A stretch of 35,802 nucleotides of DNA from an uncultured Lachnospiraceae bacterium (GTDB lineage Bacteria; Bacillota; Clostridia; Lachnospirales; Lachnospiraceae). Where the stretch lies: NCBI GenBank assembly GCA_902783775.1, contig CACZSI010000070.1, positions 1 to 35,802 on the forward strand, in the 5' to 3' direction. Positions 11,948 to 33,338 of the stretch are shown here, one piece after another. The position numbers and the translations under genes are program-made. The notes below the pieces were generated by a model, which was given only the letters and a program-made list of their open reading frames with translations, was not told the DNA's origin and searched no databases. Within the stretch, counting starts at the first letter, position 1. Each line of letters begins with the position of its first letter.

Positions 11948-12562
11948 ATGTCACTTAACACAGTTGCTACAAAGGGTAATCTTATTTCAGCTAAGAATTC
12001 ACTCAACTTAGCGAAAATGGGTTACGACCTTATGGATAAAAAAAGAAATATTCTCATCAGAGAAATTATGACTCTTATTGATAAAGCTAAAGAAATTCAG
12101 GATGAAATCGATGAGACTTTTAAAGAAGCATATCATACATTGGAATTAGCTAACATCGAATTGGGTATTAAAAATGTGGAGACTTTCGCCTTCAATGTAA
12201 TTCCGGAAGACTCCATCAGAATTAAGACCCGAAGCGTAATGGGAACGGAAATCCCACTAGTTAATCACAATGAAGATGTGCGAAATCCTGTGTACTCATT
12301 TTATGGAACCACAGAATCTCTCGATAAAGCCAAGGCATCTTTTGAAAAAGTAAAAGATCTTACTATCCGCCTTTCCATTATCGAAAATTCTGCATATAGA
12401 TTAGCTTACAATATTAAAAAGACCCAGAAAAGGGCCAATGCTCTTAAGAATATAACTATCCCTAGTTATACTAATCTTATTAAGCATATATCCGATGAAT
12501 TAGAAGAAAAAGAAAGGGATGAATTTACAAGACTCAAAGTTATCAAAAATAGAATAAATTAA
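11948..12562 (+). CDS. ntpD: V-type ATPase subunit D (central rotor shaft)
   Basis: Subunit D is the long antiparallel coiled coil at the core of the central stalk, turning inside A3B3. The 204-aa protein has two long helices at its ends (about residues 15-75 and 125-195) around a middle hairpin region. The C-terminal block R-R/K-x-N-A-L-K-N-I-x-I-P (here R-A-N-A-L-K-N-I-T-I-P near residues 162-172) is the family signature. The opening differs slightly from the usual P-T-R/K-x-x-L. It is the last gene of the operon, with a terminator 40 bases downstream. Confidence 0.93.
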   Translation: MSLNTVATKGNLISAKNSLNLAKMGYDLMDKKRNILIREIMTLIDKAKEIQDEIDETFKEAYHTLELANIELGIKNVETFAFNVIPEDSIRIKTRSVMGTEIPLVNHNEDVRNPVYSFYGTTESLDKAKASFEKVKDLTIRLSIIENSAYRLAYNIKKTQKRANALKNITIPSYTNLIKHISDELEEKERDEFTRLKVIKNRIN

Positions 12563-12696: not shown

Positions 12697-14088
12697 ATGA
12701 GAAAATTATTATTTTTATTATCATTTATTTTAATGTTTAATTTAACATTATTCGTTAATGTATCTGCTGCTGAAAGTAAGTGGCCTAGCGGACCGGATAT
12801 TTACGCTAAATCAGGAATAGTAATTGATGCTGATTCCGGCACAGTTCTATACGATAAGAAATCTGATACTAAAAGATATCCAGCCAGCATTACTAAAATA
12901 ATCACAGCTCTTCTTACTATTGAAAACTGTAAGATGAATGACACTGTTACATTTTCTAAAAATGCTATTACCAGTCTTCAGTATGGCGATGCTAACTTTG
13001 GTTGTCAGATTGGTGAGAAAATGACAGTTAAAGAATGCTTATATGCTTTAATGTTATCATCAGCTAATGAAGTTGCCACTGCATTAGGAGAACATGTTGG
13101 TGGAACTGAAGAAAACTTCGCTAAAATGATGACTGAAAGAGCTAAAAAAGCCGGTGCTAAAAACACTAATTTTGTTAACTGTAATGGACTTCATAATAAG
13201 GAACATTACGTGACTGCTTATGACATGGCTATGATTATGAAGGATGCCTTAAAATATGATTCCTTTAAGAAAATTATTAATTCTACTACTTACACAGTAA
13301 AGAAGAATAATAAAAGAAAAACTAATGATCAGACACTTCAGCGTCATAAGATGGTTTGGTTAACTAGTGGTTATTACTATGATGGAATCATTGGTGGTAA
13401 AACAGGTTACACTGATGAAGCCGGAAATACTTTGGTAACAGCAGCTAAGCGAAACGGGACTACACTTATCAGTGTTGTTCTTAAATCTAATACTTTTAAT
13501 GTTTATGAGGACACTAAAAAATTATTAGATTTTGGTTTCGATAACTTTGAAAATAAAAATGTATCTGAAAACGACACTAGATTCGTGCAGAATACTAATA
13601 GTTCTAATTTAAAATCACCATTTACTGATTATGAGGATAATATTTATATTGATCCTAATTCTTCAGTAGTATTACCTAAGAATTTTAAGTTTAAGGACTT
13701 AAAATCACAGGTTGTTTTCGAGAAAGAGAAAAACTCTTTTGCTAAGGTTGTTTATAAATATGGTGATAAAGAAGTAGGTACAGCCAGACTTATCTATGAA
13801 AAAAATGGAAAAGTTCAGACTAATAAAGTTTCTAAAAAGACTAACGAAACACCTACATTAATTGCACCTACTGCTGTTAATAAAGCTAATAAGAAACAAG
13901 CTAATAAGGAAACTAAGGTTACTACATCTAAAACTAAAAATTCTAATACATCAGCTATTATTAAAATCATTGTTATGATTATTATTGTTATCTTAGCAGT
14001 TGTAGTATGTTCTATATTAGTTAGAAATAAGAGAAAAAAACTTAAACATATTAGAAAGTCTAAAAGACAGCGTTACTATAGAGATTAG
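12697..14088 (+). CDS. dacA: D-alanyl-D-alanine carboxypeptidase (PBP5-like, peptidase S11)
   Basis: It trims the terminal D-Ala from peptidoglycan stem peptides outside the cell. The 463-aa precursor has a signal peptide (residues 1 to about 24, ending V-S-A-A). The three penicillin-binding motifs are intact: S-I-T-K (nucleophile S64, K67), S-A-N (S122-N124) and K-T-G (235-237). A PBP5-type C-terminal domain follows. After it comes a Lys/Asn/Thr-rich linker (about 375-420), one membrane helix (about 424-444) and a very basic tail, so the protein is held by a bitopic anchor rather than the amphipathic helix of Escherichia PBP5. The AGAGG site lies unusually close to the ATG. The next gene starts 26 bases after the stop and is probably co-transcribed. 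The symbol is by family; the exact paralogue is uncertain. Confidence 0.92.
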   Translation: MRKLLFLLSFILMFNLTLFVNVSAAESKWPSGPDIYAKSGIVIDADSGTVLYDKKSDTKRYPASITKIITALLTIENCKMNDTVTFSKNAITSLQYGDANFGCQIGEKMTVKECLYALMLSSANEVATALGEHVGGTEENFAKMMTERAKKAGAKNTNFVNCNGLHNKEHYVTAYDMAMIMKDALKYDSFKKIINSTTYTVKKNNKRKTNDQTLQRHKMVWLTSGYYYDGIIGGKTGYTDEAGNTLVTAAKRNGTTLISVVLKSNTFNVYEDTKKLLDFGFDNFENKNVSENDTRFVQNTNSSNLKSPFTDYEDNIYIDPNSSVVLPKNFKFKDLKSQVVFEKEKNSFAKVVYKYGDKEVGTARLIYEKNGKVQTNKVSKKTNETPTLIAPTAVNKANKKQANKETKVTTSKTKNSNTSAIIKIIVMIIIVILAVVVCSILVRNKRKKLKHIRKSKRQRYYRD

Positions 14089-14114: not shown

Positions 14115-14843
14115 ATGAATTGGGTAGCTCCTATTAAGGATGAAGAAACATTAAATGCATTTAAAAATGAATTAAAAAAGACCGATATGAAATATTATAT
14201 TATGTTTGAAATCGGTGTTAACACTGGAATGCAGTTACAGGATATCTTAAAGCTTACTATAAAGGATATTAAAAATAAAAATCAGCTTACAGCAGAAATC
14301 GGAACTAAAAAAGTTAAGAGTACTTTCGTATTTGATGATGAATTTAAGAAAGTATTAAAAGACTTCTGTAGTCATAAACCTGATGATGCTCCTATAGTAG
14401 CTGGTCAGAAAAATAAACCTTTAGCTAGAGAACAGGCATACAGAGTATTCCGTTCAGTAGGAAAGAAAGTCGGATTAGCATCAATTGGTGCCCAGACTAT
14501 GAGAAAAACTTTTGCTAGAAATTACTATAAGGAAACTGGAGATATTTATTATTTACAGAATATGTTTAATCATGCTTCTCCATCTATCACATATAGATTT
14601 ATCGGTGAAAAACCTAATATTGAAATCGTATTAGATAAGATGACTCCACAGGAAAATGAGAGAAGTAGATATCTTCTATATTTAAATGATAATGGTAAGA
14701 AACGTCTTAATAAAATTATTGATTCTTTAAATGATATTAAAAAGAACTTTGATAATCCTACTAATAACGATGCTTATTACGGAAGAGTTGATTGTCTTCT
14801 TAATGAGTTAGATAACTTAATGGATAACTTTGAAAATAAATAA
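14115..14843 (+). CDS. Tyrosine-recombinase-fold protein with substituted active site
   Basis: The 242-aa protein matches the catalytic domain of small lambda-integrase-type recombinases that lack an N-terminal arm domain: W-V-A-P-I-K-D opening, N-T-G-M-Q-L-Q-D-I-L-K-L (36-47), T-M-R-K-T-F-A (128-134) and F-N-H-A-S-P-S-I-T-Y-R-F (151-162). Against the family pattern, Arg-I is Gln (Q40), the His of H-x-x-R is Gln (Q127) and the Tyr nucleophile is Phe (F162). Only the box-II Arg (R130), H153 and a cluster of possible beta-hairpin lysines (K65/K66/K68) remain. The frame is intact, with no stop or shift, and a 65-residue charged, helical C-terminal extension follows. It is therefore likely a DNA-binding or regulatory protein without strand cleavage; that is inference. 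It follows the carboxypeptidase gene in one transcript and ends at a terminator. Codon use matches the neighbours, so recent transfer is not indicated. Confidence 0.85.
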   Translation: MNWVAPIKDEETLNAFKNELKKTDMKYYIMFEIGVNTGMQLQDILKLTIKDIKNKNQLTAEIGTKKVKSTFVFDDEFKKVLKDFCSHKPDDAPIVAGQKNKPLAREQAYRVFRSVGKKVGLASIGAQTMRKTFARNYYKETGDIYYLQNMFNHASPSITYRFIGEKPNIEIVLDKMTPQENERSRYLLYLNDNGKKRLNKIIDSLNDIKKNFDNPTNNDAYYGRVDCLLNELDNLMDNFENK

Positions 14844-14854: not shown

Positions 14855-14888
14855 AAAAAAGATATGTAATTTGTTACATATCTTTTTT
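14855..14888. terminator. Strong bidirectional terminator
   Basis: A perfect 15-bp stem (AAAAAAGATATGTAA at 14855-14869, complement at 14874-14888) has a 4-base loop, with A-run and T-run at the two ends. It separates the convergent recombinase-like gene and the exonuclease gene. Confidence 0.85.
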
Positions 14889-14901
14889 ATTATAATGATA
14901 T

Positions 14902-15882
14902 TTATAATTCCTCTATCACTATTTCCCTATCTAATATTCTCTGTCGTTTCTCTCTTCTCTTCTCTCTAATGCTATTTTGTTTTTCAACTATTTTTCTAGC
15001 CCCATCTTTATCTGTATTCTTTAAGATTTTAATAACGAAGAAGGATAATCTATCTATTTTCTTTACCCTAATTCTTCCCTTAACATATCCATGTTTTCTG
15101 CATTTTCCTAAAGAATAATATGTTTTTCCGCTATCCGAAAACCAATCAATTAATACCTTAACTTTTTTATTGCACTTACTGCAACAGATATTATTAAAAT
15201 CATCGTCCTCGAACAATTCCGTCTTGCTCCACATTTCTCGAGATATTCTCTTGTTATAATCACCAAAACTTACGAAAATTTCCTCTTCCTTGATTCGCGG
15301 ATAATAATATGTATCAATAGATACTCGCTTTTTAAATTTCTCAAAATCCATCTTCTGCATTACTTTCGCCGTATAATAGGCATCACTTAATGCACGATGA
15401 AATTCCTTATTACCATTAATATTTAAAAATTCTACTGCGCTGGTAAGATTTCTCTTATTCTTACCATCTTCATAGCATAAACTAAATATCTTCTGCAAAT
15501 CATAATAAAAAAGTGGAAAGTCCAGAATTCTCTCATAACCGAAAAATTTCATATTGGCCTGCAATTCATGTAAATCCATTGCACCCCAGGTACAGAATAT
15601 GTAATCATCTCCGCACCACTCTAAAAACTGCCTCATAACTTTAGGAAAACTTTTTCCCTTCTTTAATTCATCATTTGTAAAATGAGTTATCTCTGCAGTT
15701 TTATAATGCAATTTCTTGAAAACCTTAGGTTTAATAACCTGGCTAAATTTATCCACATAATTTAGATTATCATCTAACTTTACCGCGCCAATTTCGATTA
15801 TCTCAAAATTTAAATCAACTCTGCGTTTACTATTTCCGTAAGGATTTTGGTTCCACTCTAAGTCCATTACAATGTAATCCAT
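14902..15882 (-). CDS. DEDDh-type 3'-5' exonuclease (DnaQ/KapD-like) with C-terminal zinc-binding motif
   Basis: The first 180 residues form an RNase T/DnaQ-type exonuclease. ExoI is M-D-L-E-W (D7, E9), ExoII is W-G-A-M-D-L (D103), and ExoIII is H-R-A-L-S-D-A (H162, D167), so all four metal ligands and the general-base His are present. Unlike a polymerase proofreading subunit, this is a stand-alone KapD/ERI-1-like protein of 326 aa. The C-terminal part has C-S-K-C (234-237) and C-R-K-H (261-264), a likely zinc ribbon, then a highly basic helix (about 305-320). Such a tail suits nucleic-acid binding. The substrate, RNA or DNA, cannot be told. It lies 29 bases downstream of tRNA-Arg, probably in a transcript with serS. 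Confidence 0.85.
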   Translation of the reverse strand: MDYIVMDLEWNQNPYGNSKRRVDLNFEIIEIGAVKLDDNLNYVDKFSQVIKPKVFKKLHYKTAEITHFTNDELKKGKSFPKVMRQFLEWCGDDYIFCTWGAMDLHELQANMKFFGYERILDFPLFYYDLQKIFSLCYEDGKNKRNLTSAVEFLNINGNKEFHRALSDAYYTAKVMQKMDFEKFKKRVSIDTYYYPRIKEEEIFVSFGDYNKRISREMWSKTELFEDDDFNNICCSKCNKKVKVLIDWFSDSGKTYYSLGKCRKHGYVKGRIRVKKIDRLSFFVIKILKNTDKDGARKIVEKQNSIREKRREKRQRILDREIVIEEL

Positions 15883-18959: not shown

Positions 18960-19883
18960 TTATTTTATACTATTTATTAAACCTATTAATCTATCAAGTT
19001 CATCCGGTGAGTAATATTCAATTTCAATCTTACCCTTGCCACCCTTCTTATGATTAATAGTAACCTTAGTTCCTAAAACACTCTTAAGATTTTCATTAAT
19101 CTTATCATAAATAATATCCTCGCTAGTAGGAACATCAATCTTAGCTTGCTTAGGATTCAATATTGCCTTAACTAATTTCTCAGTTTCTCTAACACTAAGA
19201 TTTTTCTCAACTACCTCTCTGGCAGTTTTAATCTGCAATTCCTCTAACTCTAAAGCTAGTAAAGCTCTGGCATGACCCATTGAAATTTCTTCATTAATAA
19301 TCATCTCCTGAACTTCATCTGCTAATTTTAATAATCTCATAGAGTTAGTAATAGCTGTTCTAGACTTAGATAGTCTCTTAGCTAACTCATCCTGCTTAAG
19401 ACTAAACTCATCAATTAATTTTTTATAAGCTTTAGCTTCTTCAATAGCATTTAAGTCTTTTCTCTGAATATTTTCTATTAAGGCAATTTCCATAACCTCT
19501 CTATTAGAATATTCTTTAATAATAACCGGCACTTCTTTAATCTTAGCTAACTTAGCTGCACGCCATCTTCTCTCACCTGCTACGATTTCATAATAATCAT
19601 CTTTTTTCTGAACAACAATAGGCTGAATCAAACCATACTGTTTAATAGAATTAGATAATTCCTCTAGTGCTTCTTTATCAAACTTTTTACGAGGCTGATC
19701 TCTGTTAGGTTCAATATCAGAAATTTTTAAAATAGTTTCCGTGGGAACCTTAACCTCCTTAATAACTTCTTTAACTTCTACCTTTTTAGATGACTTTTTA
19801 GTTTTAGAACTAGTTTCTTCCTTATCCTCTGCCGGTGGAATTAAAGAATCAATTCCTCTTCCTAATCCTTTTCTCTTTGCCAT
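18960..19883 (-). CDS. parB: Chromosome partitioning protein ParB (Spo0J)
   Basis: ParB is a CTP-dependent DNA clamp that loads at parS and spreads along the origin region, recruiting SMC and stimulating ParA. The 307-aa protein has the N-terminal ParA-activating peptide R-K-G-L-G-R-G-I-D (4-12), an acidic/Lys-rich linker, the CTP-binding blocks G-E-R-R-W-R-A (103-109) and E-N-I-Q-R (137-141), and a helix-turn-helix region (S-K-S-R-T-A-I-T-N-S-M-R-L and M-G-H-A-R-A-L-L-A-L). A dimerising C-terminal domain ends the protein. All key residues are in place. Two perfect parS sites lie 1.1-1.3 kb upstream. Confidence 0.96.
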   Translation of the reverse strand: MAKRKGLGRGIDSLIPPAEDKEETSSKTKKSSKKVEVKEVIKEVKVPTETILKISDIEPNRDQPRKKFDKEALEELSNSIKQYGLIQPIVVQKKDDYYEIVAGERRWRAAKLAKIKEVPVIIKEYSNREVMEIALIENIQRKDLNAIEEAKAYKKLIDEFSLKQDELAKRLSKSRTAITNSMRLLKLADEVQEMIINEEISMGHARALLALELEELQIKTAREVVEKNLSVRETEKLVKAILNPKQAKIDVPTSEDIIYDKINENLKSVLGTKVTINHKKGGKGKIEIEYYSPDELDRLIGLINSIK

Positions 19884-19905
19884 TATACTTACCTTTCTAA
19901 ATTAG

Positions 19906-19939
19906 ATATAATTATGTTAACCAGTTTACATAATTATAT
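19906..19939. repeat. 12-bp inverted repeat between parA and parB
   Basis: The arms ATATAATTATGT (19906-19917) and ACATAATTATAT (19928-19939) are perfect complements around a 10-base loop that can pair further (TAA/TTT around CCAG with one mismatch). The right arm touches the parA stop codon. There is no U-run on the minus strand, so it is not a normal terminator. It may be an operator, a processing site or a stability hairpin. Confidence 0.6.
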
Positions 19940-20700
19940 TATTTTTTCTTAATAACTTCCTTAGCTAATTTGTCATATGCCACTGCTCCAGCTGATTTAG
20001 CATCATACATATTAATAGGATATCCGTAACTAGGGGCTTCAGCTAACCTAACATTTCTAGGAATAACTGTGTCATAAATATTTAAATGAATATTAGACTT
20101 AACATTATCCACTACTTCATTTGATAAATTAGTTCTAGAATCATACATAGTAAATACAATTCCATCTATTTCTAAATTAGAATTAATTCTATCTTTAATT
20201 AAATTAATAGTATGAACTAACTGTGATAATCCTTCTAGAGCATAGTACTCACACTGTATAGGTACAATTACTGAATCTGCAGCCACCATGGCATTAACAG
20301 TAAGAATATTAAGAGATGGAGGACAATCGATAATTATAAAGTCATATTCATCCTTAACTTCGTTTAAACTGTCTTTTAAAATATATTCCCTCTTATCTAC
20401 TCCAATTAAGTCAATCTCTGCACCTGATAAATTCACATTAGAAGGAACAATATTTAGATTATCTACTATACTATTTGTAATACATTCTTTTAATTCTTTC
20501 TCTCCTAAAAACATCTCATATACAGTGTTTTCAAGATTCTGTTTTATAATTCCCACTCCGCTAGTAGCGTTACCCTGTGGATCAATGTCTACCAAAAGAA
20601 CTTTCTTTCCACTCATAGCAATACTAGAAGATAGATTAATAGAAGTAGTTGTTTTACCAACTCCACCTTTCTGATTCGCGATAGCTATTATTTTTCCCAT
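19939..20700 (-). CDS. parA: Chromosome partitioning ATPase ParA (Soj)
   Basis: ParA is a dimerising, DNA-binding ATPase that works with ParB in origin segregation and, in Bacillus, also regulates DnaA. The 253-aa length is normal for chromosomal Soj. The deviant Walker A K-G-G-V-G-K-T-T (11-18) has the signature Lys K11, Walker A' is D-x-D-P-Q-G-N-A-T, and Walker B is I-I-I-D-C-P-P-S near residue 124. The C-terminal segment I-P-R-N-V-R-L-A-E-A-P-S-Y-G is typical. A promoter and an upstream terminator suggest that parA-parB-DUF4446 is its own transcription unit. Confidence 0.96.
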   Translation of the reverse strand: MGKIIAIANQKGGVGKTTTSINLSSSIAMSGKKVLLVDIDPQGNATSGVGIIKQNLENTVYEMFLGEKELKECITNSIVDNLNIVPSNVNLSGAEIDLIGVDKREYILKDSLNEVKDEYDFIIIDCPPSLNILTVNAMVAADSVIVPIQCEYYALEGLSQLVHTINLIKDRINSNLEIDGIVFTMYDSRTNLSNEVVDNVKSNIHLNIYDTVIPRNVRLAEAPSYGYPINMYDAKSAGAVAYDKLAKEVIKKK

Positions 20701-20748
20701 TTTAATTTCCTTTCTAAATGATTTCCCTGCTTAATTCTATCATATATA

Positions 20749-20778
20749 AATATATATTTCTATACATTCTAAAGTCAA
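20749..20778 (-). promoter_or_regulatory. Probable parA promoter
   Basis: Minus strand TTGACT (20778-20773), 18-base spacer, TATATT (20754-20749). It sits just after the terminator at 20783-20815, which fits a fresh start for the parA operon. Confidence 0.5.
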
Positions 20779-20782
20779 AATT

Positions 20783-20815
20783 AAAAAAGATGGATAATTT
20801 ATATCCATCTTTTTT
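20783..20815 (-). terminator. Terminator of the rsmG transcript
   Basis: A perfect 14-bp stem (AAAAAAGATGGATA at 20783-20796, complement at 20802-20815) has a 5-base loop and a U-run on the minus strand. It lies 5 bases after the stop codon of the parS-bearing gene. Confidence 0.85.
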
Positions 20816-20820
20816 AATAA

Positions 20821-21507
20821 TTATATTTCTTCATTTAATTCATCATATTCTGAATCATACTCTGAATCATATTCTGTTTCATATTCTTCTGCTATTTCTT
20901 CTGTATTCTCAGAAGCTAACTTAGATAATCTATTAATATCATTGATAATATTAATTAATTCTAACTTAGTTCTGTATCCATCAGTCTCTGCTATTCTGGC
21001 ACAGAATTTTAATCTCTCAAAGAATGTTTCACGTGAAACATCTATATAATTATTCTTTATTTCTGTGAATTCATCGCTAATCCTGCTATTATCGAGATAA
21101 TCACTCACCTTAATGTCTAAAAAACCGTTAGAATCCTTATAATTACTGTTAATACTCGTGGAACCATTAAATGTTTCACGTGAAACATCATTATTATATT
21201 CATCTAAACATTCTTTAATAATATTAAATTCTTTAGTAGTAATAGAAATAACTTTTTCACATTCTTTATTATCTAAAACCACAGCAGCGATTTGTTTGTT
21301 AATTCTTTCTATTTCTTTATTGTTATAAGTTCTAGTATTCTTATTAACAGAAAATAATTCTGTAGCTTCATCTTTCTTTTCAGATAATTCTTTTATTTCA
21401 TTATTCAACTCAATTATTTTAAGCTGATTTATTTCAATCTGTTTTTCATTACTATCAATTATATTTTTTAATATATTAGATCTACTTAATAAATATTTTT
21501 TAATCAT
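20821..21507 (-). CDS. Unknown coiled-coil protein whose gene carries two parS sites
   Basis: I do not recognise this 228-aa protein. It begins with a coiled-coil helix rich in Lys/Glu/Asn (about residues 10-50 and 65-105), then a middle part with two copies of the peptide D-V-S-R-E-T-F (about 107-113 and 156-162), a short helical domain (about 164-200), and a strongly acidic tail made of Y-D-S-E repeats. The two D-V-S-R-E-T-F peptides are simply what a 16-bp parS site encodes in this frame. It has no membrane helix and no helix-turn-helix that I can see. The gene sits between rsmG and parA, where Bacillus subtilis has noc, and follows rsmG by 12 bases with an AGAGG site. It could be a ParB-associated factor, or mainly a vehicle for parS. 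Confidence 0.75.
   Translation of the reverse strand: MIKKYLLSRSNILKNIIDSNEKQIEINQLKIIELNNEIKELSEKKDEATELFSVNKNTRTYNNKEIERINKQIAAVVLDNKECEKVISITTKEFNIIKECLDEYNNDVSRETFNGSTSINSNYKDSNGFLDIKVSDYLDNSRISDEFTEIKNNYIDVSRETFFERLKFCARIAETDGYRTKLELINIINDINRLSKLASENTEEIAEEYETEYDSEYDSEYDELNEEI
20843..20890. repeat. Four 12-bp tandem repeats in the acidic tail
   Basis: The units TCATATTCTGAA, TCATACTCTGAA, TCATATTCTGTT and TCATATTCTTCT (plus strand) run without gaps. On the minus strand they encode the Y-D-S-E and E-T-E-Y series at the C terminus of the parS-bearing gene. Unit number could vary between strains. Confidence 0.8.
21025..21040. promoter_or_regulatory. parS site 1 (ParB binding)
   Basis: TGTTTCACGTGAAACA is a perfect 16-bp palindrome and an exact match to the Bacillus-type parS consensus. 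It lies inside the coiled-coil gene, 1.1 kb from parB and about 8 kb from the dnaA region. Confidence 0.95.
21172..21187. promoter_or_regulatory. parS site 2 (ParB binding)
   Basis: This is a second exact copy of TGTTTCACGTGAAACA, 147 bp (49 codons) from site 1 and in the same reading frame, so both encode V-S-R-E-T. A close pair should favour ParB loading and spreading. Confidence 0.95.
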
Positions 21508-21519
21508 ATTATCCTCTCA

Positions 21520-22245
21520 CTATTTTTTTAAAGGTTTTCTATTTGGAGTTCCAGCTTTTCTAGGATAAGCTTTAGGTGTATTATTTATTTTCTTAATATT
21601 AATAAATATTCTATCAATATCAGATTCTGGAAGATGTTCCTCTTCTTTTGAAATAATTTCTCCACCTAATACTTTAATAGCATACTTAGCACTTTCGATT
21701 TCTTCATCGCTAAATGATGACTTATAGCTAATAAACTTTCCATCTACTTTTACAAAAGGAATACAATACTCTGATAAAGTACATAGATTAGCTACAGCTC
21801 TAGAAACACATACATCATATTTTTCTCTATGATTCTTATCTCTAGCTACATCTTCAGCTCTTCCATGAACTAATGTAATCTTTTCTAATTTTAATTCATC
21901 TATTACTTCTTTAATAAAATTTAATCTTTTATTTAATGAATCAACTAAAGTTATATTTAATTCTGGAAAAATAATCTTTAATGGAATACCTGGAAAACCT
22001 GCTCCAGTACCTACATCTATTAAACTATCTATCTTGTTAAAATCAAAAACTTTAACTGAAAGTATACTATCAATAAAATGTTTGATTATAACTTCGTCTT
22101 CATCTACTATCGCTGTGAGATTCATCACTTTATTTTTTTCAACTAACATTTCATAATATTTATAAAACTGATCAATTTGTAAATCAGTTAATTCTATATT
22201 AATTTCATTAGCTGCCTTCTTTAATAACTCTTTTCCATGACGCAT
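21520..22245 (-). CDS. rsmG: 16S rRNA (guanine-527-N7)-methyltransferase RsmG (GidB)
   Basis: RsmG makes m7G527 in 16S rRNA near the streptomycin site. The 241-aa length is normal. The SAM-binding motif D-V-G-T-G-A-G-F-P-G-I-P-L-K is at about residues 77-90, and C-V-S-R-A-V-A near 139 holds the conserved Arg-Ala segment. The C-terminal tail is very basic (R-K-A-G-T-P-N-R-K-P-L-K-K), typical of Firmicutes copies. An AGAGG site precedes the ATG. A terminator between mnmG and rsmG suggests a separate transcript or attenuated read-through. Confidence 0.95.
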   Translation of the reverse strand: MRHGKELLKKAANEINIELTDLQIDQFYKYYEMLVEKNKVMNLTAIVDEDEVIIKHFIDSILSVKVFDFNKIDSLIDVGTGAGFPGIPLKIIFPELNITLVDSLNKRLNFIKEVIDELKLEKITLVHGRAEDVARDKNHREKYDVCVSRAVANLCTLSEYCIPFVKVDGKFISYKSSFSDEEIESAKYAIKVLGGEIISKEEEHLPESDIDRIFINIKKINNTPKAYPRKAGTPNRKPLKK

Positions 22246-22314
22246 AATATTACCTCTATTTAGTTTATATAATATTTGTTTACATAATTATTTATATTAA
22301 ATTCCATATAAAAT

Positions 22315-22351
22315 AAAAAATAAAATTAACCTAACATTAATTTTATTTTTT
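22315..22351 (-). terminator. Possible terminator between mnmG and rsmG
   Basis: A perfect but A/T-only 15-bp stem (AAAAAATAAAATTAA at 22315-22329, complement at 22337-22351) has a 7-base loop and a U-rich side on the minus strand, 16 bases after mnmG. The lack of G-C pairs makes it less certain. Confidence 0.6.
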
Positions 22352-22366
22352 ATCTTAATCTATAAT

Positions 22367-24247
22367 CTAGTTAGAACCTTTCTGTTTCATATAAATTAAT
22401 AAAACAGAAATATCCGCAGGAGATACACCTGATATTCTAGATGCCTGTCCTATATTAATTGGTCTATATAATTCTAATTTCTGTCTGGCTTCATTTCTCA
22501 AACTAGAAACTAATGAATAATCAAAATCACTAGGAATCTTTTTACTTTCTAGCTTTTTAAAATTTTCCACCTGTTTTTTCTGTCTTTCAATATAACCCTT
22601 ATATTTAATTTCAATACTAATCTGCTCACAGATATCATCATTGAATTTTTCTCTATCAGGATCTAACTCTTTTATTTTCTCATAATCTAATTCCGGTCTT
22701 CTAATTAACTCGTCTAAACTAACAGCTGTCTTTAAAGAAGTACTTCCTAACTTTTCTAAAATTTCCTGAACCTTCTTATTAGCTCCAACCTTAATCTTAG
22801 ATAATCTCTCGATTTCATTGTCAATGATAATTCTCTTATTGACCACATAATCATATCTTTCCTTTGGAACTAAACCTATTTCATATCCCAATGGAGTCAA
22901 TCTTAAATCAGCATTATCCTGTCTTAACAACAAACGATATTCTGATCTAGAAGTCATCATTCTATATGGTTCATGACTTTCTTTTGTAACTAAGTCATCA
23001 ATTAAAACTCCGATATATCCAGTAGCTCTGTCAATTACAATAGGATCTTCATTTTTAACAAATCTAGCTGCATTTATTCCAGCCATTAATCCCTGAGCTG
23101 CAGCCTCCTCATAACCTGAACTTCCATTAAACTGACCGGCAGAAAATAGGCCTTCAATATTTTTTATCTGAAGACTTGGTAATAACTGACCATACTCAAT
23201 ACAGTCATATTCAATAGCATAGGCATTTCTTACTATCTTAACATTTTCTAACCCTGGAACAGTTTTATACATTTCATATTGCACATCCTCAGGAAGTGAA
23301 GATGACATTCCACCTAAATACATTTCATTAGTATAAAGTCCCTCAGGTTCAATAAATACCTGATGTCTATTTTTATCTGCAAACTTCATTACTTTATCTT
23401 CTATAGAAGGACAATATCTAGGACCGGTACCCTCTATCATTCCTGAAAATAGTGGTGAGCGATCTATATTATCCCTAATTATCTCATGAGTTTTTTCTGT
23501 AGTATAAGTTAGCCAACATGAAATCTGTTCCTTTTGAATTTCATCCGGATTAGTACTAAATGAAAATGGAACTATTCTCTCGTCACCAAACTGCTCTTCC
23601 ATCTTTGAAAAATCAATACTTCTTTTATCTACTCTAGCAGGTGTACCTGTTTTAAATCTTCTAATCTTAATACCTAAATCAAGTAAAGACTTAGTCAATT
23701 CATTGGCAGCCATAAGTCCATTAGGACCTGTGTGCTGACAAACATCACCATAAATACACTTACCATTTAGGTAAACACCGGTAGCTAACACAACTGCATT
23801 GGCATAGTATGTTGCACCAGAAGAAGTTTTAACTCCAATAACTTTATTATCCTCAGTTAAAATTTCAGAAACTTCACCCTGTCTTATTGTTAAATTATCA
23901 GTATTTTCCAATGTAAATCTCATCTGTCTGGTATAATCCTGCTTATCCGCCTGAGCTCTCAAGCTGTGGACTGCAGGTCCCTTAGATTTATTTAACATCT
24001 TAGACTGAATAAAAGTCTTATCTATATTTTTTCCCATTTCACCGCCGAGAGCATCTATTTCTCTAACTAAATGTCCCTTTGATGTTCCTCCAATATTAGG
24101 ATTACATGGCATCATAGCAATACTATCAACGCTAACAGTAAAAACAATTGTATTTAAACCTAGTCTGGCACTGGCTAAAGCTGCTTCACATCCGGCATGT
24201 CCTGCACCAACTATTACAACATCATAAGTTTCCTCTAATAATTTCAA
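22367..24247 (-). CDS. mnmG: tRNA uridine-5-carboxymethylaminomethyl modification enzyme MnmG (GidA)
   Basis: MnmG works with MnmE to add the cmnm5 (or nm5) group to U34 of tRNAs that read A/G-ending codons, using FAD and NADH. The 626-aa protein has the FAD motif [10 protein letters not shown] (14-23), the long insert [11 protein letters not shown] near 280, the block [17 protein letters not shown] near 305, and the conserved [10 protein letters not shown] segment near 375. The C-terminal helical domain that docks MnmE ends in G-x-S-P-A-D-I-S-V-L. It follows mnmE by 17 bases, the usual arrangement. Confidence 0.97.
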
Positions 24248-24264
24248 AACTTCCTCCTAAAAAA

Positions 24265-25641
24265 TTACTTACCCATACAGAATTTCGAAAAAATTTCATT
24301 TACTAAATCATCTTCCACACTCTCGCCGGTAATTCTACCCAATGCTGCATAAGCATCCATAAGGTCAATTGCATAAAAATCCTCCGGCATCATGTTATCT
24401 ACAGATTCTTTAACTTTATATAAACTATTTAAACTCTCATCTAAACATTCTTTTTGTCTTATGTTCGTAATATAAATCTGATCATTATAAGATATCTCCT
24501 CATTATAAAACATATCTTTAATAATCTCGCCTAATTCATCAACACCCTTTTTCTCTTTGGCAGAGAAAATAATTATTTTATCAGTTAAATCTTTAATTTC
24601 ATCGATGTTAACTACTGTGTCCATATCAGATTTATTAATGATAACAACAAACTCTCTATCTTTAATTATGTTAATAATTTCATAATCATTGTCATCTAAA
24701 TGCTTAGAACCATCTACCACATATATAATTAAATCAGCATCATTTGCTAACTGCTTAGATTTTTCCACACCAATTTTTTCAACCACATCCTTAGTTTCTC
24801 TAATTCCTGCAGTGTCAATAACATTAAGATTTAATCCATTAAAACTAATATTTTCCTCTAAAGCATCTCTAGTTGTACCCTCAATATCAGTTACAATAGC
24901 TTTATCTTCTCCAATTAATAAATTAAGCAAAGAAGATTTACCGGCATTAGGCTTTCCTAATATAACAGTTTTAATACCTTCTTTTATGATTCGTCCATTG
25001 TCAAAAGATTTTATTAACTTATCTATTTTTTCAATGTTAGTTGTTAACATTTTATTTATTTCTTCATCATATCCATCTAAACTTATATGCTCCGGATCAT
25101 CTAGTGCCGATTCAATATAAGCTAAATGATATAAAATATCTTCTCTAATTTCCTTTATTTTCTCAGAAACTCCACCTTTTAACTGATTAATAGAAGTAGA
25201 CAATGCCCTATCATTTCCAGCATTTATAATATCCATAATAGATTCAGCTTGTGATAAATCCATTTTTCCATTTAAAAATGCACGCTTAGAAAATTCACCT
25301 GGCATCGCAGTTTTAGCACCATTTTTAATACATAGTTCCAAAACTTTTTTCATCACTAACATACCGCCATGGCAATCAATTTCCACTACATCTTCTCCGG
25401 TATATGAATTAGGTCCCTTCATAACAATTACTAAAACCTGATCTATTACAGTATCACCATCCATAATATATCCTAAATTAGCGCTGTGCGATTTAACATC
25501 TATTAACTTTTTATTGTCAATATGAGATTTAAAAATCTTATCAACAATATTAATAGACTCACTTCCACTAACTCTTATTATTCCTATACCTGAATTTCCG
25601 CTGGCTGTTGAAATAGCAGCTACTGTATCAGTATTTTTCAT
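24265..25641 (-). CDS. mnmE: tRNA modification GTPase MnmE (TrmE)
   Basis: MnmE is the GTPase partner of MnmG in tRNA wobble-uridine modification. The 458-aa protein has the folate-binding N-terminal domain (I-A-A/T-x-x-G-x-G-I-G-I-I-R-x-S-G pattern at 9-26, here with S-G-N-S-G), the helical domain interrupted by the G domain, G1 G-K-P-N-A-G-K-S-S (near 229-237), G3 D-T-A-G, G4 N-K-S-D, and the C-terminal C-M-G-K with the conserved Cys. All elements are intact. A possible extended -10 lies upstream, and the jag terminator separates it from the rpmH group. Confidence 0.97.
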   Translation of the reverse strand: MKNTDTVAAISTASGNSGIGIIRVSGSESINIVDKIFKSHIDNKKLIDVKSHSANLGYIMDGDTVIDQVLVIVMKGPNSYTGEDVVEIDCHGGMLVMKKVLELCIKNGAKTAMPGEFSKRAFLNGKMDLSQAESIMDIINAGNDRALSTSINQLKGGVSEKIKEIREDILYHLAYIESALDDPEHISLDGYDEEINKMLTTNIEKIDKLIKSFDNGRIIKEGIKTVILGKPNAGKSSLLNLLIGEDKAIVTDIEGTTRDALEENISFNGLNLNVIDTAGIRETKDVVEKIGVEKSKQLANDADLIIYVVDGSKHLDDNDYEIINIIKDREFVVIINKSDMDTVVNIDEIKDLTDKIIIFSAKEKKGVDELGEIIKDMFYNEEISYNDQIYITNIRQKECLDESLNSLYKVKESVDNMMPEDFYAIDLMDAYAALGRITGESVEDDLVNEIFSKFCMGK

Positions 25642-25679
25642 AACTAATTCCTTTCGAAAATATAAATTACAACTAATTT

Positions 25680-25688
25680 AGTATAGCA
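25680..25688 (-). promoter_or_regulatory. Possible mnmE promoter (extended -10)
   Basis: Minus strand TGC-TATACT (TATACT at 25685-25680) lies 39 bases before the mnmE start. The -35 region is weak. Its place just after the jag terminator supports a new transcript here. Confidence 0.45.
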
Positions 25689-25741
25689 TAGACCTAAAGA
25701 AAAGACCATTATATTGTTAAAATCCCTACTTTTTTACACTA

Positions 25742-25784
25742 AAAAAAGATTAAACCTTGCATAAAACAAAATTTAATCTTTTTT
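25742..25784 (-). terminator. Terminator of the rpmH-rnpA-yidD-yidC-jag group
   Basis: A perfect 13-bp stem (AAAAAAGATTAAA at 25742-25754, complement at 25772-25784) has a 17-base loop and a U-run on the minus strand, 15 bases after the jag stop. Confidence 0.75.
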
Positions 25785-25799
25785 ATTTTAAATAATTTC

Positions 25800-26432
25800 T
25801 TATTTATCTTTCTTTAATACTACTACAACATGTCTAAATGGCTCTTCACCTTCACTCTTTGTAGTACAGAATTTATCATTCTGAAGAGCTGAATGAATAA
25901 TTCTTCTCTCATATGGATTCATTGGCTCTAAAGAAACAGGTCTCTTAGTTCTCTTAACCTTCATTGCAATATTTTTAGCTAAGTTCTCTAATGTAGCCTT
26001 TCTTCTCTCACGATAATTCTCAGTATCTAATTTTACTCTGTAGAAATTATCTGAATCCTTGTTAACAACTAAGCTAACAAGATACTGTAATGAATCAAGA
26101 GTCTGTCCTCTTTTACCAATTAACACACCCATGTCATCACCTAAGATGTTAATGTTAATTTCTTTTTCTTTATCATCAGTAACCTGAATATCAAGCTTAT
26201 TAGCAATATCCATTGCACCTAAAACATCACTTAAGAATGTTCTAGCAATCTCTTCTACTGAAGCACTCTTTCTAGCTTTGATAATAGCTGGCTTACTTCC
26301 GATTCCTAAAAATCCGTTTCCGCCTTTGTCAATTACTTCATACTCTAGTTTATCACTTGTGATTCCAAGGCTCTCACATGCTAAAGTAATAGCCTCATCA
26401 ACATTCTTTGCACTAAATTCTTTAAAATCCAT
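25800..26432 (-). CDS. khpB: RNA-binding protein Jag (KhpB)
   Basis: Jag/KhpB is an RNA-binding protein linked to cell elongation and division, often acting with KhpA. The 210-aa protein has all three domains: the Jag-N domain (1-50, with G-N-G-F-L-G-I-G), a KH domain with the G-x-x-G loop I-G-K-R-G-Q-T-L near residue 110, and an R3H domain with E-R-R-I-I-H-S-A-L near 174. The linker between Jag-N and KH is short (about 20 residues), where some species have long linkers. It follows yidC by 11 bases, the usual order. Confidence 0.95.
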   Translation of the reverse strand: MDFKEFSAKNVDEAITLACESLGITSDKLEYEVIDKGGNGFLGIGSKPAIIKARKSASVEEIARTFLSDVLGAMDIANKLDIQVTDDKEKEININILGDDMGVLIGKRGQTLDSLQYLVSLVVNKDSDNFYRVKLDTENYRERRKATLENLAKNIAMKVKRTKRPVSLEPMNPYERRIIHSALQNDKFCTTKSEGEEPFRHVVVVLKKDK

Positions 26433-26443
26433 TTTCTAAACCT

Positions 26444-27670
26444 CTATTTATTATTTTTCTCATTATATTTCTGAACTAAATTAGCCTTAGAAGCGATAGA
26501 ATTAGAAGACTTAGCTGCCTTTTCCTTAGCAATTCTAATTTTCTCTTCTTTTTCTTTATCAGTTGAAGAATTTACATTCTTAGCATTAACCTTAGAAGCC
26601 TCTAAAATCTTTTCTCTGTAAATTCCCTGTCTCTCTTTTCTCTTAGCCGCTTTAACTGCAGCTTTTTCCTTATTCTTTTCAACTAATTCATCAAGATCTT
26701 CATTCTTTAATATTATGTTAATAAATATCTGTTGTATCAACATAATAAGTGAACCTGCACACCAATATATACCGATACCAATCTGAAGAATATAACACAT
26801 GTAAACTGAGAATAATGGCATTACATAGTTCATAATCTTCATTGAACTAGCCATTGTATCATTACTCTGTGCTGATTCATTTAGCTTACTAGTAACCTGA
26901 ACACTTATAAACTGGAAAATACCAGCTAAAATAGGAATAATTAACACTATAAACAAAGCTGTTCCGGCTGCATATAAAGCACTAGGTGACTGGCTGATAT
27001 CTAATCCAAAAAAGTTGTTAAGTCTTTTAATCTTATTAACATCGCTAGGATTAGCTACCTTAAAGATTTCATTAACCATATCAGCAGTTAATTCTTTCTT
27101 TCCATTCTTTCTAGTATATAAAATGTCAATACACTTGTTTAAGTCAGTTGTTGATAACTTAGCACCGATTTTGCCTTTAATTCCAAAATACTTCTCAATC
27201 ATTGAAGCATCTAATTTTGTAATTACATTAATATAAAGATTTTTAACAGAACCTACATATGCAGGAATGTTATAAATAACTCTGTACAATGCAAAAAGAA
27301 TAGGCATCTGAATAATCAACTGAAGACAGCTTCCAGTAGGTGAAACTCCATACTTATCATAAACAGATGTGATTTCTTCCTGCATCTCCATCTGTGACTG
27401 CTGGTCTTTTCTATCCTTATACTTATTCTGAATCTTCTTGATTTCCGGAGCCATTACACTATTAAGTCTGGTAAACTTCTGCTGCTTAATTGTCATTGGC
27501 AACATAAGCATTCTTACTACAATAGTGAATACAATAATGAACAAACCAATATTATAAATGTCAAAATGAGCGAATATTCTGTAAATAAAATCAAGAATAT
27601 AACCCATTACAATCGCTAATTGCTTTAATATAGGCGTATTAGTTTGTGTTGCAATTATTAAACTATTCAA
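26444..27670 (-). CDS. yidC: Membrane protein insertase YidC (SpoIIIJ/OxaA)
   Basis: YidC inserts membrane proteins alone or with SecYEG. The 408-aa protein has five membrane helices in the conserved 60-kDa inner-membrane-protein fold. The first transmembrane block is followed by the groove arginine (R58 in V-V-R-M-L-M-L-P-M) and the cytosolic hairpin of K-I-Q-N-K-Y-K-D-R. Later helices include Q-M-P-I-L-F-A-L-Y. An insert of about 80 residues between the second and third helices (about 145-225) is longer than in Bacillus. The C-terminal tail (about 325-408) is very Lys-rich and suits ribosome contact. There is no lipoprotein signal, unlike Bacillus SpoIIIJ. Co-transcribed with yidD and jag. 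Confidence 0.95.
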   Translation of the reverse strand: MNSLIIATQTNTPILKQLAIVMGYILDFIYRIFAHFDIYNIGLFIIVFTIVVRMLMLPMTIKQQKFTRLNSVMAPEIKKIQNKYKDRKDQQSQMEMQEEITSVYDKYGVSPTGSCLQLIIQMPILFALYRVIYNIPAYVGSVKNLYINVITKLDASMIEKYFGIKGKIGAKLSTTDLNKCIDILYTRKNGKKELTADMVNEIFKVANPSDVNKIKRLNNFFGLDISQSPSALYAAGTALFIVLIIPILAGIFQFISVQVTSKLNESAQSNDTMASSMKIMNYVMPLFSVYMCYILQIGIGIYWCAGSLIMLIQQIFINIILKNEDLDELVEKNKEKAAVKAAKRKERQGIYREKILEASKVNAKNVNSSTDKEKEEKIRIAKEKAAKSSNSIASKANLVQKYNEKNNK

Positions 27671-27681
27671 TTTTTTTCTCC

Positions 27682-27945
27682 TTATGGGACCGGATCATAT
27701 CCTCCCTTGCTAAAATGATTACATCTAAGAATCCTTTTAACAGCAAGATATGAACCCTTAAAAGGTCCATATTTCTCTAAAGCTTCCACTGCATACTGAG
27801 AACATGTAGGAATAAATCTACATGAACTATTTCTCTTTAAAGGAGATAAGAATATTTGATAAAACTTAATCCCACCAATAAGAAAATATAATAAACCTTT
27901 TCTCACCGATAATAGAATCTTCTTTAATATATTTAAAATTTTCAT
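27682..27945 (-). CDS. yidD: Membrane protein insertion efficiency factor YidD
   Basis: YidD is a small membrane-associated protein that helps YidC-dependent insertion. Its core [17 protein letters not shown] and the later [18 protein letters not shown] are exact family signatures, with three conserved cysteines. A GTG six codons earlier (27963) is in frame, but its own codons overlap the GGAAGG ribosome site; the ATG at 27945 lies 10 bases after that site and gives 87 aa, normal for the family. Confidence 0.93.
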
Positions 27946-28054
27946 ATATCTTATACCTTCCACAAAGAAAGCTTACTATTCAAACTAGTTACATGCAATT
28001 ACTGATTATCAACATATAAAACTACTATTTATACTTCACCATCAATAATCCTAA

Positions 28055-28387
28055 TTACTTCTTATTCAAAATTTTGTGAATTTTACCAAGATGCAATAAT
28101 GCACTCTCGATTTCTTTAAAAGTTCTGCCTTTAGCATTTTCACGTGCTATAACGACAATGTCCAAACCACTATTGAACATATCACTATTAAGTCTATAAC
28201 TCTCTCTTATTAACCTGGTAAGACGATGTCTAACTACGCTATTTCCTACTTTTTTACTTACTGAAATACCTACCCTATTATAAGATAAATTATTTTCCAA
28301 ATAGTATAAAACTAAATACTTATTAGCTTTCGATTTACCTTTTCTGTAAACCTTTGTAAAATCCTTATTCTTTTTTAATGATTCCAT
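28055..28387 (-). CDS. rnpA: Ribonuclease P protein component
   Basis: RnpA is the protein cofactor of the RNase P ribozyme that matures tRNA 5' ends. The 110-aa protein has the opening L-K-K-N-K-D-F-T-K-V-Y-R-K-G and the RNA-binding block R-V-G-I-S-V-S-K-K-V-G-N-S-V-V-R-H-R-L-T-R-L-I-R-E (about 38-62), the family hallmark (usual form G-N-A-V-x-R-N-R; here G-N-S-V-V-R-H-R). It lies after rpmH, with a terminator hairpin in between that should lower rnpA output relative to L34. Confidence 0.95.
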   Translation of the reverse strand: MESLKKNKDFTKVYRKGKSKANKYLVLYYLENNLSYNRVGISVSKKVGNSVVRHRLTRLIRESYRLNSDMFNSGLDIVVIARENAKGRTFKEIESALLHLGKIHKILNKK

Positions 28388-28415
28388 CCTTATCCATTAC
28401 CTAAATTATCAATAG

Positions 28416-28447
28416 ATAAAAAAAAGGTCACATTAAAATGCGACCTT
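28416..28447 (-). terminator. Terminator/attenuator between rpmH and rnpA
   Basis: On the minus strand the stem AAGGTCGCATT/AATGTGACCTT (28447-28437 and 28434-28424, one G-T pair) has a run of eight T after it. It overlaps the rpmH stop codon by two bases. It may let only part of the transcription pass into rnpA-yidD-yidC-jag. Confidence 0.75.
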
Positions 28448-28580
28448 AAGCTGATAATTTCTTTCTTCCTTTTGCTCTTCTTGCAGCAAGTACTTTTCTA
28501 CCGCTAGAAGTTTTCATTCTCTTTCTGAAACCATGAACTTTAGATCTCTGTCTCTTCTTTGGCTGAAATGTCATCTTCAT
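28446..28580 (-). CDS. rpmH: 50S ribosomal protein L34
   Basis: L34 is the small basic protein near the peptide exit side of the large subunit. The 44-aa protein [14 protein letters not shown]... ends in [11 protein letters not shown] and matches L34 end to end. The frame is open further upstream to 28643, but AAAGGAGGTG lies 9-10 bases before the ATG at 28580, and the longer N terminus is hydrophobic and foreign to the family. A second ATG two codons later is possible. A weak TATACT (28638-28633) may be its -10. Confidence 0.96.
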
Positions 28581-28648
28581 GTCAAATGCACCTCCTTTAT
28601 CGTAGTGTAAGACATCTATAATCATAAAAATAAGTATAATCATAGTCG

Positions 28649-29064
28649 TTTAACTATTAAACCATATTTTCAAGTATTTTTCAAGATATTTTTAATAATT
28701 TTTTTTAATAAATATAATACAAGGTTACTTAATTTTTGTTGAATAAAAAAAGTTTTAAACATGATGTTAATAAAATGTTTATAACTTTTATTGATAAAAT
28801 TATTTTTAATCCCTAATATAGGGGTTTATTGACACTTATTAACATTATTATGACGATAAGTGTTAATAATATCAATAACTTTAATAACAATTATTTCAAT
28901 TAATTTTTATTATTATGTTAACCAACTATCTTTTTTCCATTGATTTTTTATTTATTTTTTTATTTTTTACCTCTTATTTTTTTCTTTTTTTAAGGGTTTT
29001 TGATGATAAATATCACTAAAATGATAATGAGTTTCTTCTTATTATAATATATTAGTTTATTTTG
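28649..29064. other. Probable oriC part 1 (rpmH-dnaA gap)
   Basis: This is an extremely AT-rich region between divergent rpmH and dnaA, the standard Firmicutes origin position. DnaA-box-like TTAT-WW-ACA 9-mers occur as TTATTAACA on the minus strand at 28765-28773, TTATAAACA on the minus strand at 28776-28784 (11 bp apart, one helix turn), TTATTAACA on the plus strand at 28836-28844, and on the minus strand again at 28861-28869, the last two forming an inverted pair. No perfect TTATCCACA box is present. Long T-runs fill 28930-29000. Box matches in such AT-rich DNA can arise by chance, so the call leans on gene context. Confidence 0.65.
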
Positions 29065-29093
29065 TTGAAAATATATGCCATTTGAATTATAAT
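29065..29093 (+). promoter_or_regulatory. dnaA promoter
   Basis: TTGAAA (29065-29070), a 17-base spacer and a perfect TATAAT (29088-29093). Transcription should start near 29100, giving a leader of about 40 bases. Confidence 0.8.
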
Positions 29094-29141
29094 ATTATAG
29101 TGTGCCTAAATAGGTATTTTACGCTTTTTTTGGAGGTTATA

Positions 29142-30539: not shown

Positions 30540-30877
30540 AAGTTATTATACTTATTAACGTTAATAACATGTTAATAGTGTGTTGATTATAATTATTTTA
30601 GAATTTATAAATTTTTATAATCATCTTATTATCACTCTATTAATCCATTACTAACACGTTATCAATAAATTTTAACTATCTGTTTTATCAGTAATTATGG
30701 GTATTATATTGGGTTATCTACATATCAACAGCCCTTATTAATATTATGATTAAATTATTATATATTATTTATATATTTATAATTTTATAAACATTATTCG
30801 ATTCTAATTTTATCGAGGCTTTTTTTACTAAAAGCAAAACTTTTTAACTACGATTTTTATATAAGGAGAAAAAAATA
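30540..30877. other. Probable oriC part 2 with unwinding element (dnaA-dnaN gap)
   Basis: This gap starts with a 16-bp perfect palindrome TTATTAACGTTAATAA (30552-30567), then CTATTAACA on the minus strand (30578-30570). TTATCTACA (30714-30722), the closest match to the consensus box, is followed by about 60 almost pure A/T bases (30734-30793) that end with TTATAAACA (30785-30793). Box, then AT-only stretch, is the order of the Bacillus incC/DUE between dnaA and dnaN, so melting probably happens here. A weak hairpin TCGAT/ATCGA (30798-30816) with a T-run may end dnaA transcription. AAGGAG for dnaN is near 30864. Confidence 0.65.
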
Positions 30878-32231: not shown

Positions 32232-32233
32232 AT

Positions 32234-33322: not shown

Positions 33323-33338
33323 GTGAAAGGAGTTACTG

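What the first reader, a model, noticed from the sequence alone, without database searches (positions are those of the whole stretch)
14115..14843. Intact tyrosine-recombinase-fold protein with three catalytic positions replaced
Aligning the visible motifs to small integrases, Arg-I is Gln (Q40 in T-G-M-Q), the box-II His is Gln (Q127 in Q-T-M-R) and the Tyr nucleophile is Phe (F162 in Y-R-F-I-G). The codons are clean (CAG, CAG, TTT) and the frame is full length with an added charged C-terminal part. A decayed gene would normally show stops or shifts. Loss of exactly the chemistry residues, with the fold motifs kept, suggests selection for DNA binding without cleavage. It is co-directional with a cell-wall carboxypeptidase, 26 bases away, and far from any mobile element. 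It might be a transcription factor or architectural protein derived from an integrase.
Basis: partly seen in the sequence, partly recalled or inferred. Interest (0 to 1): 0.75.

Follow-up and report, generated by a model that had tools for sequence, protein, structure and literature searches.

The report
Conserved dead recombinase beside dacA
A gene next to a cell-wall enzyme gene in a group of mostly gut bacteria encodes a DNA-recombinase-like protein that has lost its cutting chemistry but is kept by strong selection, so it has probably been turned into a DNA-binding or scaffolding protein for ordinary cell life.

Summary
ORF 14115-14843 (242 aa) is a tyrosine-recombinase (YR) catalytic domain with Q40, Q127 and F162 where active relatives have Arg-I, box-II His and Tyr, plus a 75-aa helical C-terminal extension. 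It is not a decayed copy. It belongs to a Lachnospiraceae protein family: among 97 distinct members read, Arg-I is Q/L/S (never R) and box-II His is Q/A (never H), while Arg-II and the second His are kept in 97 of 97. Tyr to Phe is not family-wide (Y 67, F 30). Median dN/dS is 0.03. dacA lies directly upstream in 73 of 80 named loci; in at least 9 of 29 sampled dacA loci without the gene, dacA abuts the same convergent exonuclease gene. The nearest active relatives are ~180-200-aa catalytic-domain-only recombinases of chromosomes, phages and plasmids. Best reading: such a recombinase, probably of mobile origin, was fixed in the dacA operon as a non-cutting, probably DNA-binding protein (precedents: MrpR of SPbeta, TnsF of Tn7-like elements). 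DNA binding and any target are inferred; no shared operator was found upstream of dacA. New variant of a known kind.

The parts
14115..14843 (+). CDS of the pseudo-tyrosine-recombinase, 242 aa
14115..14615 (+). residues 1-167: YR catalytic-domain fold (no N-terminal core-binding domain)
   Evidence: Pfam PF00589 match 10-162; AlphaFold model mean pLDDT 91.7, best PDB matches XerA, XerH, lambda Int
14616..14840 (+). residues 168-242: helical extension (helices 178-211 and 219-241), not aligned in 15 of 16 active relatives; no Pfam match for the window's copy at E<=0.1 (one weak match below cut-off, E=0.027, for the copy in L103)
14232..14234 (+). Q40, position of catalytic Arg-I
   Evidence: Q 93, L 3, S 1 of 97 family; R 16 of 16 active
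14304..14306 (+). T64, position of the catalytic Lys in the alignment (register uncertain by 1-2)
   Evidence: T 85, K 9, V 2, S 1 of 97; K 16 of 16 active
14493..14495 (+). Q127, position of box-II His
   Evidence: Q 96, A 1 of 97; H 16 of 16 active
14502..14504 (+). R130, Arg-II, retained
   Evidence: R 97 of 97 and 16 of 16
14571..14573 (+). H153, second His, retained
   Evidence: H 97 of 97 and 16 of 16
14598..14600 (+). F162, position of the Tyr nucleophile
   Evidence: Y 67, F 30 of 97; Y 16 of 16 active
12697..14088 (+). dacA: D-Ala-D-Ala carboxypeptidase (Peptidase_S11), upstream operon-like partner
   Evidence: PF00768 E=3.9e-56; co-directional neighbour in 73 of 80 named loci
14856..14889 (+). 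hairpin plus T-run, terminator-like end of the dacA unit (read by eye, no scan run)
   Evidence: sequence
14902..15882 (-). convergent RNase_T-type exonuclease gene; marks the junction where the gene is present or absent
   Evidence: PF00929 E=2.9e-18; convergent within 600 nt in 57 of 80 named loci

Best explanation
A catalytic-domain-only tyrosine recombinase of the kind carried by phages and plasmids was captured between dacA and a convergent exonuclease gene in Lachnospiraceae, lost Arg-I and box-II His (probably also Lys), gained a helical C-terminal extension, and has since been inherited, mostly with dacA, under strong purifying selection as a protein that should not be able to cut DNA (shown: sequence loss, predicted fold, selection, synteny; inferred: mobile origin, single capture, inability to cut). 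Most likely it still grips DNA with the retained surface (Arg-II, second His, the invariant R105-E-Q-A/V-Y-R110 stretch) and acts as a non-cleaving DNA-binding regulator or architectural protein, oligomerising or docking partners through the C-terminal hairpin, possibly controlling dacA and itself (all of this sentence is inference).
For: Residue table, 97 distinct family members against 16 active relatives. Family separate from active relatives with SH-aLRT 100 on a quick tree of 43 representatives plus 16 relatives, and again with seven catalytic-region columns left out and with ten long rows also left out. Y/F needs at least 5 or 6 changes inside the family. dN/dS median 0.031 over 111 pairs with dS 0.1-1.2 (domain 0.024, extension 0.048). 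Apart from the N-terminal nine residues (0.97), the former active-site segments 123-141 and 142-167 are the most conserved (mean top-residue frequency 0.92 and 0.91 in 43 representatives). R105, E106, Q107, Y109, R110 are invariant in 97 of 97. Domain net charge about +6.5 on average, +10 in the window. dacA upstream in 73 of 80 named loci. In at least 9 of 29 dacA loci without the gene, dacA faces the exonuclease gene directly. Precedents: MrpR, a YR-fold repressor that lost Arg-I and box-II His (Arg-II doubtful) and kept Glu, Lys and Tyr (passages of PMC10516654); TnsF (passages of PMC10293859).
Against: No shared operator upstream of dacA: enriched 8-mers there look like promoter -35/-10 words, and the slight excess of inverted repeats may be terminators. 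The extension is acidic (mean -2.1) and the domain's mean charge is lower than in active relatives (+6.5 against +11.3). For the window itself the nearest sequence has dN 0.265 and dS 1.21, so selection on this copy alone is less tightly measured, and this copy has private changes at conserved sites. In five named loci (L051, L053, L054, L055, L095) dacA is not next to the gene. The family was found in only 31 (full-length) of 397 sampled genomes of its taxonomic family, so it is not generally needed. No structure with DNA, no binding or expression data.
Confidence: 0.55

Rival explanations
1. A pseudoenzyme scaffold or partner protein that no longer binds DNA specifically; the conserved former active-site pocket and the helical hairpin bind another protein or a small molecule, for instance linking DacA or cell-wall state to something cytosolic.
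For: Active-site region remodelled yet nearly invariant (Q40, Q127, A134, Y160, E165); acidic extension; no operator found; dacA co-inheritance.
Against: The stretch R105-R110 and Arg-II are invariant in 97 of 97 apart from A/V at 108; that they face DNA is recalled from YR structures, not modelled here. DacA's cytosolic tail is very variable among loci with the gene, and a membrane segment plus basic tail also occurs in dacA loci without it, so no DacA-tail partnership is evident.
Confidence: 0.27
2. A still active recombinase with a rearranged active site (Y160 or Y162 as nucleophile, R130/K131/H153 as helpers).
For: At least one Tyr is present at 160 or 162 in all 97 members (YY 66, YF 30, FY 1); R130, K131 and H153 are invariant.
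Against: Arg-I and box-II His absent in 97 of 97; neither tyrosine is invariant. That Arg-I is needed for cleavage is recalled knowledge; the MrpR paper argues in the same way (passages).
Confidence: 0.04
3. Decaying recombinase on its way out.
For: The window's copy is more divergent than those of its genus mates (divergence ratio 1.79) and has private changes at conserved sites, e.g. R135 where W is found in 89 of 97; dacA next door has a ratio of only 1.06.
Against: dN/dS median 0.03 for the family. 31 full-length matches in 397 genomes, one of them (G151) with an in-frame TAA that the fetched frame shows to be a slightly early end, not a break. Two other neighbours share the window's excess divergence (w11 1.82, w14 1.61).
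Confidence: 0.02

Closest known systems
MrpR (YopR), master repressor of B. subtilis prophage SPbeta (PMC10516654, passages seen)
   Same: YR fold; Arg-I and box-II His lost; Tyr kept (as in 67 of 97 members here); its authors conclude that recombinase function is lost and show DNA binding and repression
   Different: MrpR is prophage-encoded, has core-binding plus catalytic domains (residues to 320), keeps Lys, has V at the H/W position and V257/R258 at Arg-II; ours is chromosomal, catalytic-domain-only with a C-terminal extension, keeps Arg-II and the second His, sits with dacA and is not shown to bind DNA. MrpR (8A0A) is not among the 50 PDB matches printed of 182
TnsF of Tn6022-like transposons (PMC10293859, passages seen)
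   Same: inactivated YR domain, apparently evolved from an active relative, kept for target selection
   Different: zinc-finger N-terminus, transposon-encoded target selector
phrog_216-type small catalytic-domain-only recombinases of Firmicutes phages, plasmids and chromosomes
   Same: closest sequence relatives outside the family; 35.7-40.1% identity in the 30 listed phage and plasmid records; similar N-terminus (VxPI(R/K))
   Different: mostly about 180-200 aa, no extension; R, K, H, R, H, Y present in the 16, the 5 and the 8
XerA, XerH, lambda Int (solved structures)
   Same: catalytic-domain fold
   Different: active enzymes with a core-binding domain (recalled); 17-22% identity in the rows printed under these names
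ALOG domains of plant regulators (PMC3537659, search listing only)
   Same: part of a YR recruited for regulation

Membership tests
Tyrosine recombinase fold (Pfam PF00589) | profile match and catalytic-domain fold | tested here: met
   73.8 bits against gathering 27.1; Foldseek to XerA E=1.6e-7, TM 0.52 by query length
Active tyrosine recombinase | R-K-H-R-H/W pentad and Tyr nucleophile | tested here: not met
   Arg-I and box-II His absent in 97 of 97, Tyr absent in 30 of 97 including the window
Xer dif recombinases (XerC/D/A equivalogs) | score above NCBIfam equivalog cut-offs | tested here: not met
   best 61.1 bits against cut-off 220
MrpR-type regulator | YR fold with loss of Arg-I and box-II His | tested here: met
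   MrpR's own residues from passages
MrpR-type regulator | specific DNA binding and repression | not testable with these tools
   indirect only: no shared motif upstream of dacA
MrpR-type regulator | core-binding plus catalytic domain architecture | tested here: not met
   only the catalytic domain plus a C-terminal extension
Mobile-element integrase | mobile-element context | tested here: not met
   dacA next door in 73 of 80 named loci; no relative confirmed in IMG/VR by a scan with two of the family's own peptides

The most novel reading that the evidence does not exclude
A chromosomally fixed, host-domesticated pseudo-tyrosine-recombinase family whose remodelled active-site pocket and new helical hairpin serve as a switchable, non-cutting DNA-binding regulator that ties cell-wall trimming (DacA) to gene expression or chromosome organisation.
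Probability: 0.3. Interest if true: 0.8.

Novelty: new variant of a known kind. Interest (0 to 1): 0.62.

Why it matters
The two bacterial examples of tyrosine recombinases turned into non-cutting DNA-binding proteins that I found in the papers seen are encoded by mobile elements (MrpR in a prophage, TnsF in transposons). Here the protein is inherited with a cell-wall gene in several Lachnospiraceae genera, as one copy in each genome with a full-length match, under strong selection, which points to a host function. All members read lack Arg-I and box-II His while the Tyr still changes between Y and F, which gives a natural record of how a recombinase becomes a pseudoenzyme. It also warns that an annotation as 'integrase' (as Pfam and PHROGs suggest) would mislead for this family.

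Tried and rejected
Decay of the family: rejected. Family-wide Tyr loss: rejected. Operator search upstream of dacA, 73 non-redundant 200-nt regions out of 89 long enough (92 collected from 101 loci): only promoter-like words; best 10-nt inverted repeat mean 8.25 against 7.74 in first-order simulated sequence, which may be terminators (by eye). DacA cytosolic tail as partner: tail is variable and not specific to loci with the gene. Pfam family for the extension: none at E<=0.1 for the window's copy. Absence in two same-genus genomes: G010 has only two more distant dacA-like genes (E 6e-48 and 8e-35), G018 has none at E<=1e-30, and neither has the exonuclease, so either a regional loss or an assembly gap. 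The scan used the peptides MNWVAPIK and SIGAQTMR; the second contains Q127, so that set is biased, and only the best 80 of 125 loci were kept; the profile and protein searches do not have that bias. The 122 sequences are 101 chosen by a profile score over 250 bits plus 21 orthologs, so they are full-length by choice; many are the same species seen through two collections, hence the count of 97 distinct. The first tree kept the catalytic columns and the program warned of long branches that meet (L133 with the active relatives among them); one search repeats it without those columns and without ten long rows, with the same split. In one search I translated 19 loci on the wrong strand; one search replaced it. 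Papers: (listings); passages only of PMC10293859, PMC10516654, PMC8987985, PMC8138268; nothing on this family was seen in these, and (tyrosine recombinase + Lachnospiraceae + catalytic residues) held no paper.

Full report
WHAT IS THERE. The frame at 14115-14843 is intact. Its first 167 residues are a tyrosine-recombinase catalytic domain; residues 168-242 form a helical extension in a confident model (mean pLDDT 91.7, pTM 0.72). There is no N-terminal core-binding domain. The gene follows dacA by 26 nt and ends in a terminator-like hairpin (by eye), so dacA and this gene look like one transcription unit.

HOMOLOGUES. In the relatives search, 54 of 60 genomes gave some match at E<=0.001; long orthologs (62-68% identity over about 240 residues) were found in 20 of the 22 same-genus genomes besides the window's own, and in one genome of another genus, G034 (63%); the remaining matches are weaker (E 6e-20 and above) and are other recombinases where I read them. 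The two same-genus genomes without it, G010 and G018 (76% complete), also lack a close dacA and the exonuclease gene. In 397 genomes of the family, 39 match at E<=1e-30: 31 full-length, 1 cut by a contig end, and 7 genomes with short relatives. I read the copies of 21 of those 31 genomes. In 391 genomes of the class, 18 match: the 2 full-length ones (the window's genome and G073) are both of the same family; 16 are short. Of those 16, I read 8 and a ninth, G051 = L026; all nine carry R, K, H, R, H and Y. A scan of named genomes gave 125 loci, of which the best 80 were kept; titles that name a genus or candidate genus include Robinsoniella, Murimonas, Hominisplanchenecus, Parablautia and Candidatus Merdiplasma.

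CATALYTIC POSITIONS. From 122 sequences, 97 distinct, and 16 short relatives: Arg-I is Q 93, L 3, S 1 against R 16 of 16; box-II His is Q 96, A 1 against H 16 of 16; the Lys column is T 85, K 9, V 2, S 1 against K 16 of 16, with uncertain register; Arg-II is R in all 97; the second His is H in all 97; Tyr is Y 67, F 30 against Y 16 of 16. So Arg-I and His are missing family-wide, while the Tyr is Y or F and nothing else in these 97. On a quick tree of 43 representatives and 16 short relatives the family is one side of a branch with SH-aLRT 100. That tree held the catalytic columns and several long branches, which the program flags as unsure. With seven catalytic-region columns left out, and again with ten long rows also left out, the split keeps SH-aLRT 100, and Y/F needs at least 5 or 6 changes inside the family; the direction of those changes is not resolved.

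SELECTION. Over 111 pairs with dS between 0.1 and 1.2, dN/dS has a median of 0.031 (range 0.005-0.49); domain 0.024, extension 0.048. For the window itself the nearest sequence already has dS 1.21 and dN 0.265. Its longer branch is shared by some neighbouring genes but not all: the divergence ratio (window against genus mates over mates among themselves) is 1.79 for this gene, 1.82 for the gene at 11948-12562 and 1.61 for the exonuclease gene, but 1.06 for dacA and 0.74-1.27 for w9, w10, w15, w18 and w19, some of which are blurred by paralogs in my judgement. Apart from the first nine residues, the most conserved segments are those around the former active site.

PLACE. dacA is directly upstream and co-directional in 73 of 80 named loci; two of the other seven have short flanks (69 and 785 nt), five truly differ (L051, L053, L054, L055, L095), and the three of these five on the tree (L051, L055, L095) form one starred clade. 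The exonuclease gene is convergent within 600 nt in 57 of 80. In 29 sampled dacA loci from genomes of the family, none holds the family's gene within the fetched flank, and at least 9 have dacA facing the exonuclease gene directly (the print was limited to four neighbours, some flanks are short, and some of the 29 may be dacA paralogs). This marks the junction as the point of gain or loss; which of the two happened where is not resolved.

ORIGIN. 151 of 50,697 phage records and 1109 of 72,556 plasmid records hold a relative at E<=0.001. No phage match covers 80% of the query; the one plasmid match that does (H16) is to a gene that itself ends at 181 aa. The five examples I read keep all catalytic residues. 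In two of these five (L223, L227) the gene lies within about 1.5 kb upstream of terminase genes. A scan of IMG/VR with two of the family's own peptides confirmed no relative. That the chromosomal family came from such an element is an inference from these relatives.

HOW IT MAY WORK. Shown: predicted fold, loss of chemistry residues, selection, synteny. Inferred: that the kept Arg-II, second His and the invariant R-E-Q-A/V-Y-R stretch hold DNA; that the hairpin extension oligomerises or docks a partner; that dacA is among the targets. The MrpR repressor is the closest precedent for the mechanism: only three of seven catalytic residues remain there, a 15-bp motif was found for its binding, and its authors suspect that such recruitment is more widespread (passages). 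A scan of dacA upstream regions gave no common operator, only promoter-like words such as TTGATTTT and TATACTAA, so autoregulation is a guess.

KNOWN OR NEW. No NCBIfam model reaches its cut-off; Pfam and PHROGs call it an integrase. I saw no paper on this family in the searches listed under Tried and rejected. It is a new, host-fixed variant of a known kind: the tyrosine recombinase turned non-cutting protein.

SECOND CASE IN THE SAME GENOME. The XerD-like gene beside a Nudix-like gene (read by eye; G000:C97:63041-63895) is intact in frame but has K, N, F, F at Arg-I, box-II His, second His and Tyr, whereas the orthologs in the 21 of 22 same-genus genomes that gave one keep R, H, H, Y. This is a loss seen only in the window's species so far, unlike the family-wide loss beside dacA.

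Noticed in passing
L003/L190 (own genome G000:C97:63041-63895, minus strand): A XerD-like protein (285 aa, beside a Nudix-like gene) is open in frame but has lost Arg-I (K), box-II His (N), second His (F) and Tyr (F) in the window's species; the orthologs in 21 of 22 same-genus genomes (one gave no match) keep them. A 367-aa recombinase in the same genome (L002) looks active by eye.
   Followed up: partly
L223 (3001-3546) and L227 (3001-3543): The small active-type recombinases in these records sit shortly upstream of terminase genes, a place often held by late regulators (recalled); they may be regulators as well as recombinases.
   Followed up: no
window 18960-35802: The window's right part seems to hold parB, parA, rnpA-, dnaN-, recF-, gyrB- and gyrA-like genes (read by eye from the ORF list, not annotated by search), so the gene lies near a probable replication origin; in some relatives it also lies near matches to the gyrB/gyrA-like ORFs.
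   Followed up: no
window 12697-14088 and relatives: DacA of many Lachnospiraceae carries a membrane helix and a very variable, often long and charged cytosolic tail, also in loci without this gene.
   Followed up: partly
G010, G018 (same genus): A close dacA, this gene and the exonuclease gene are all missing together; regional loss or assembly gap.
   Followed up: partly
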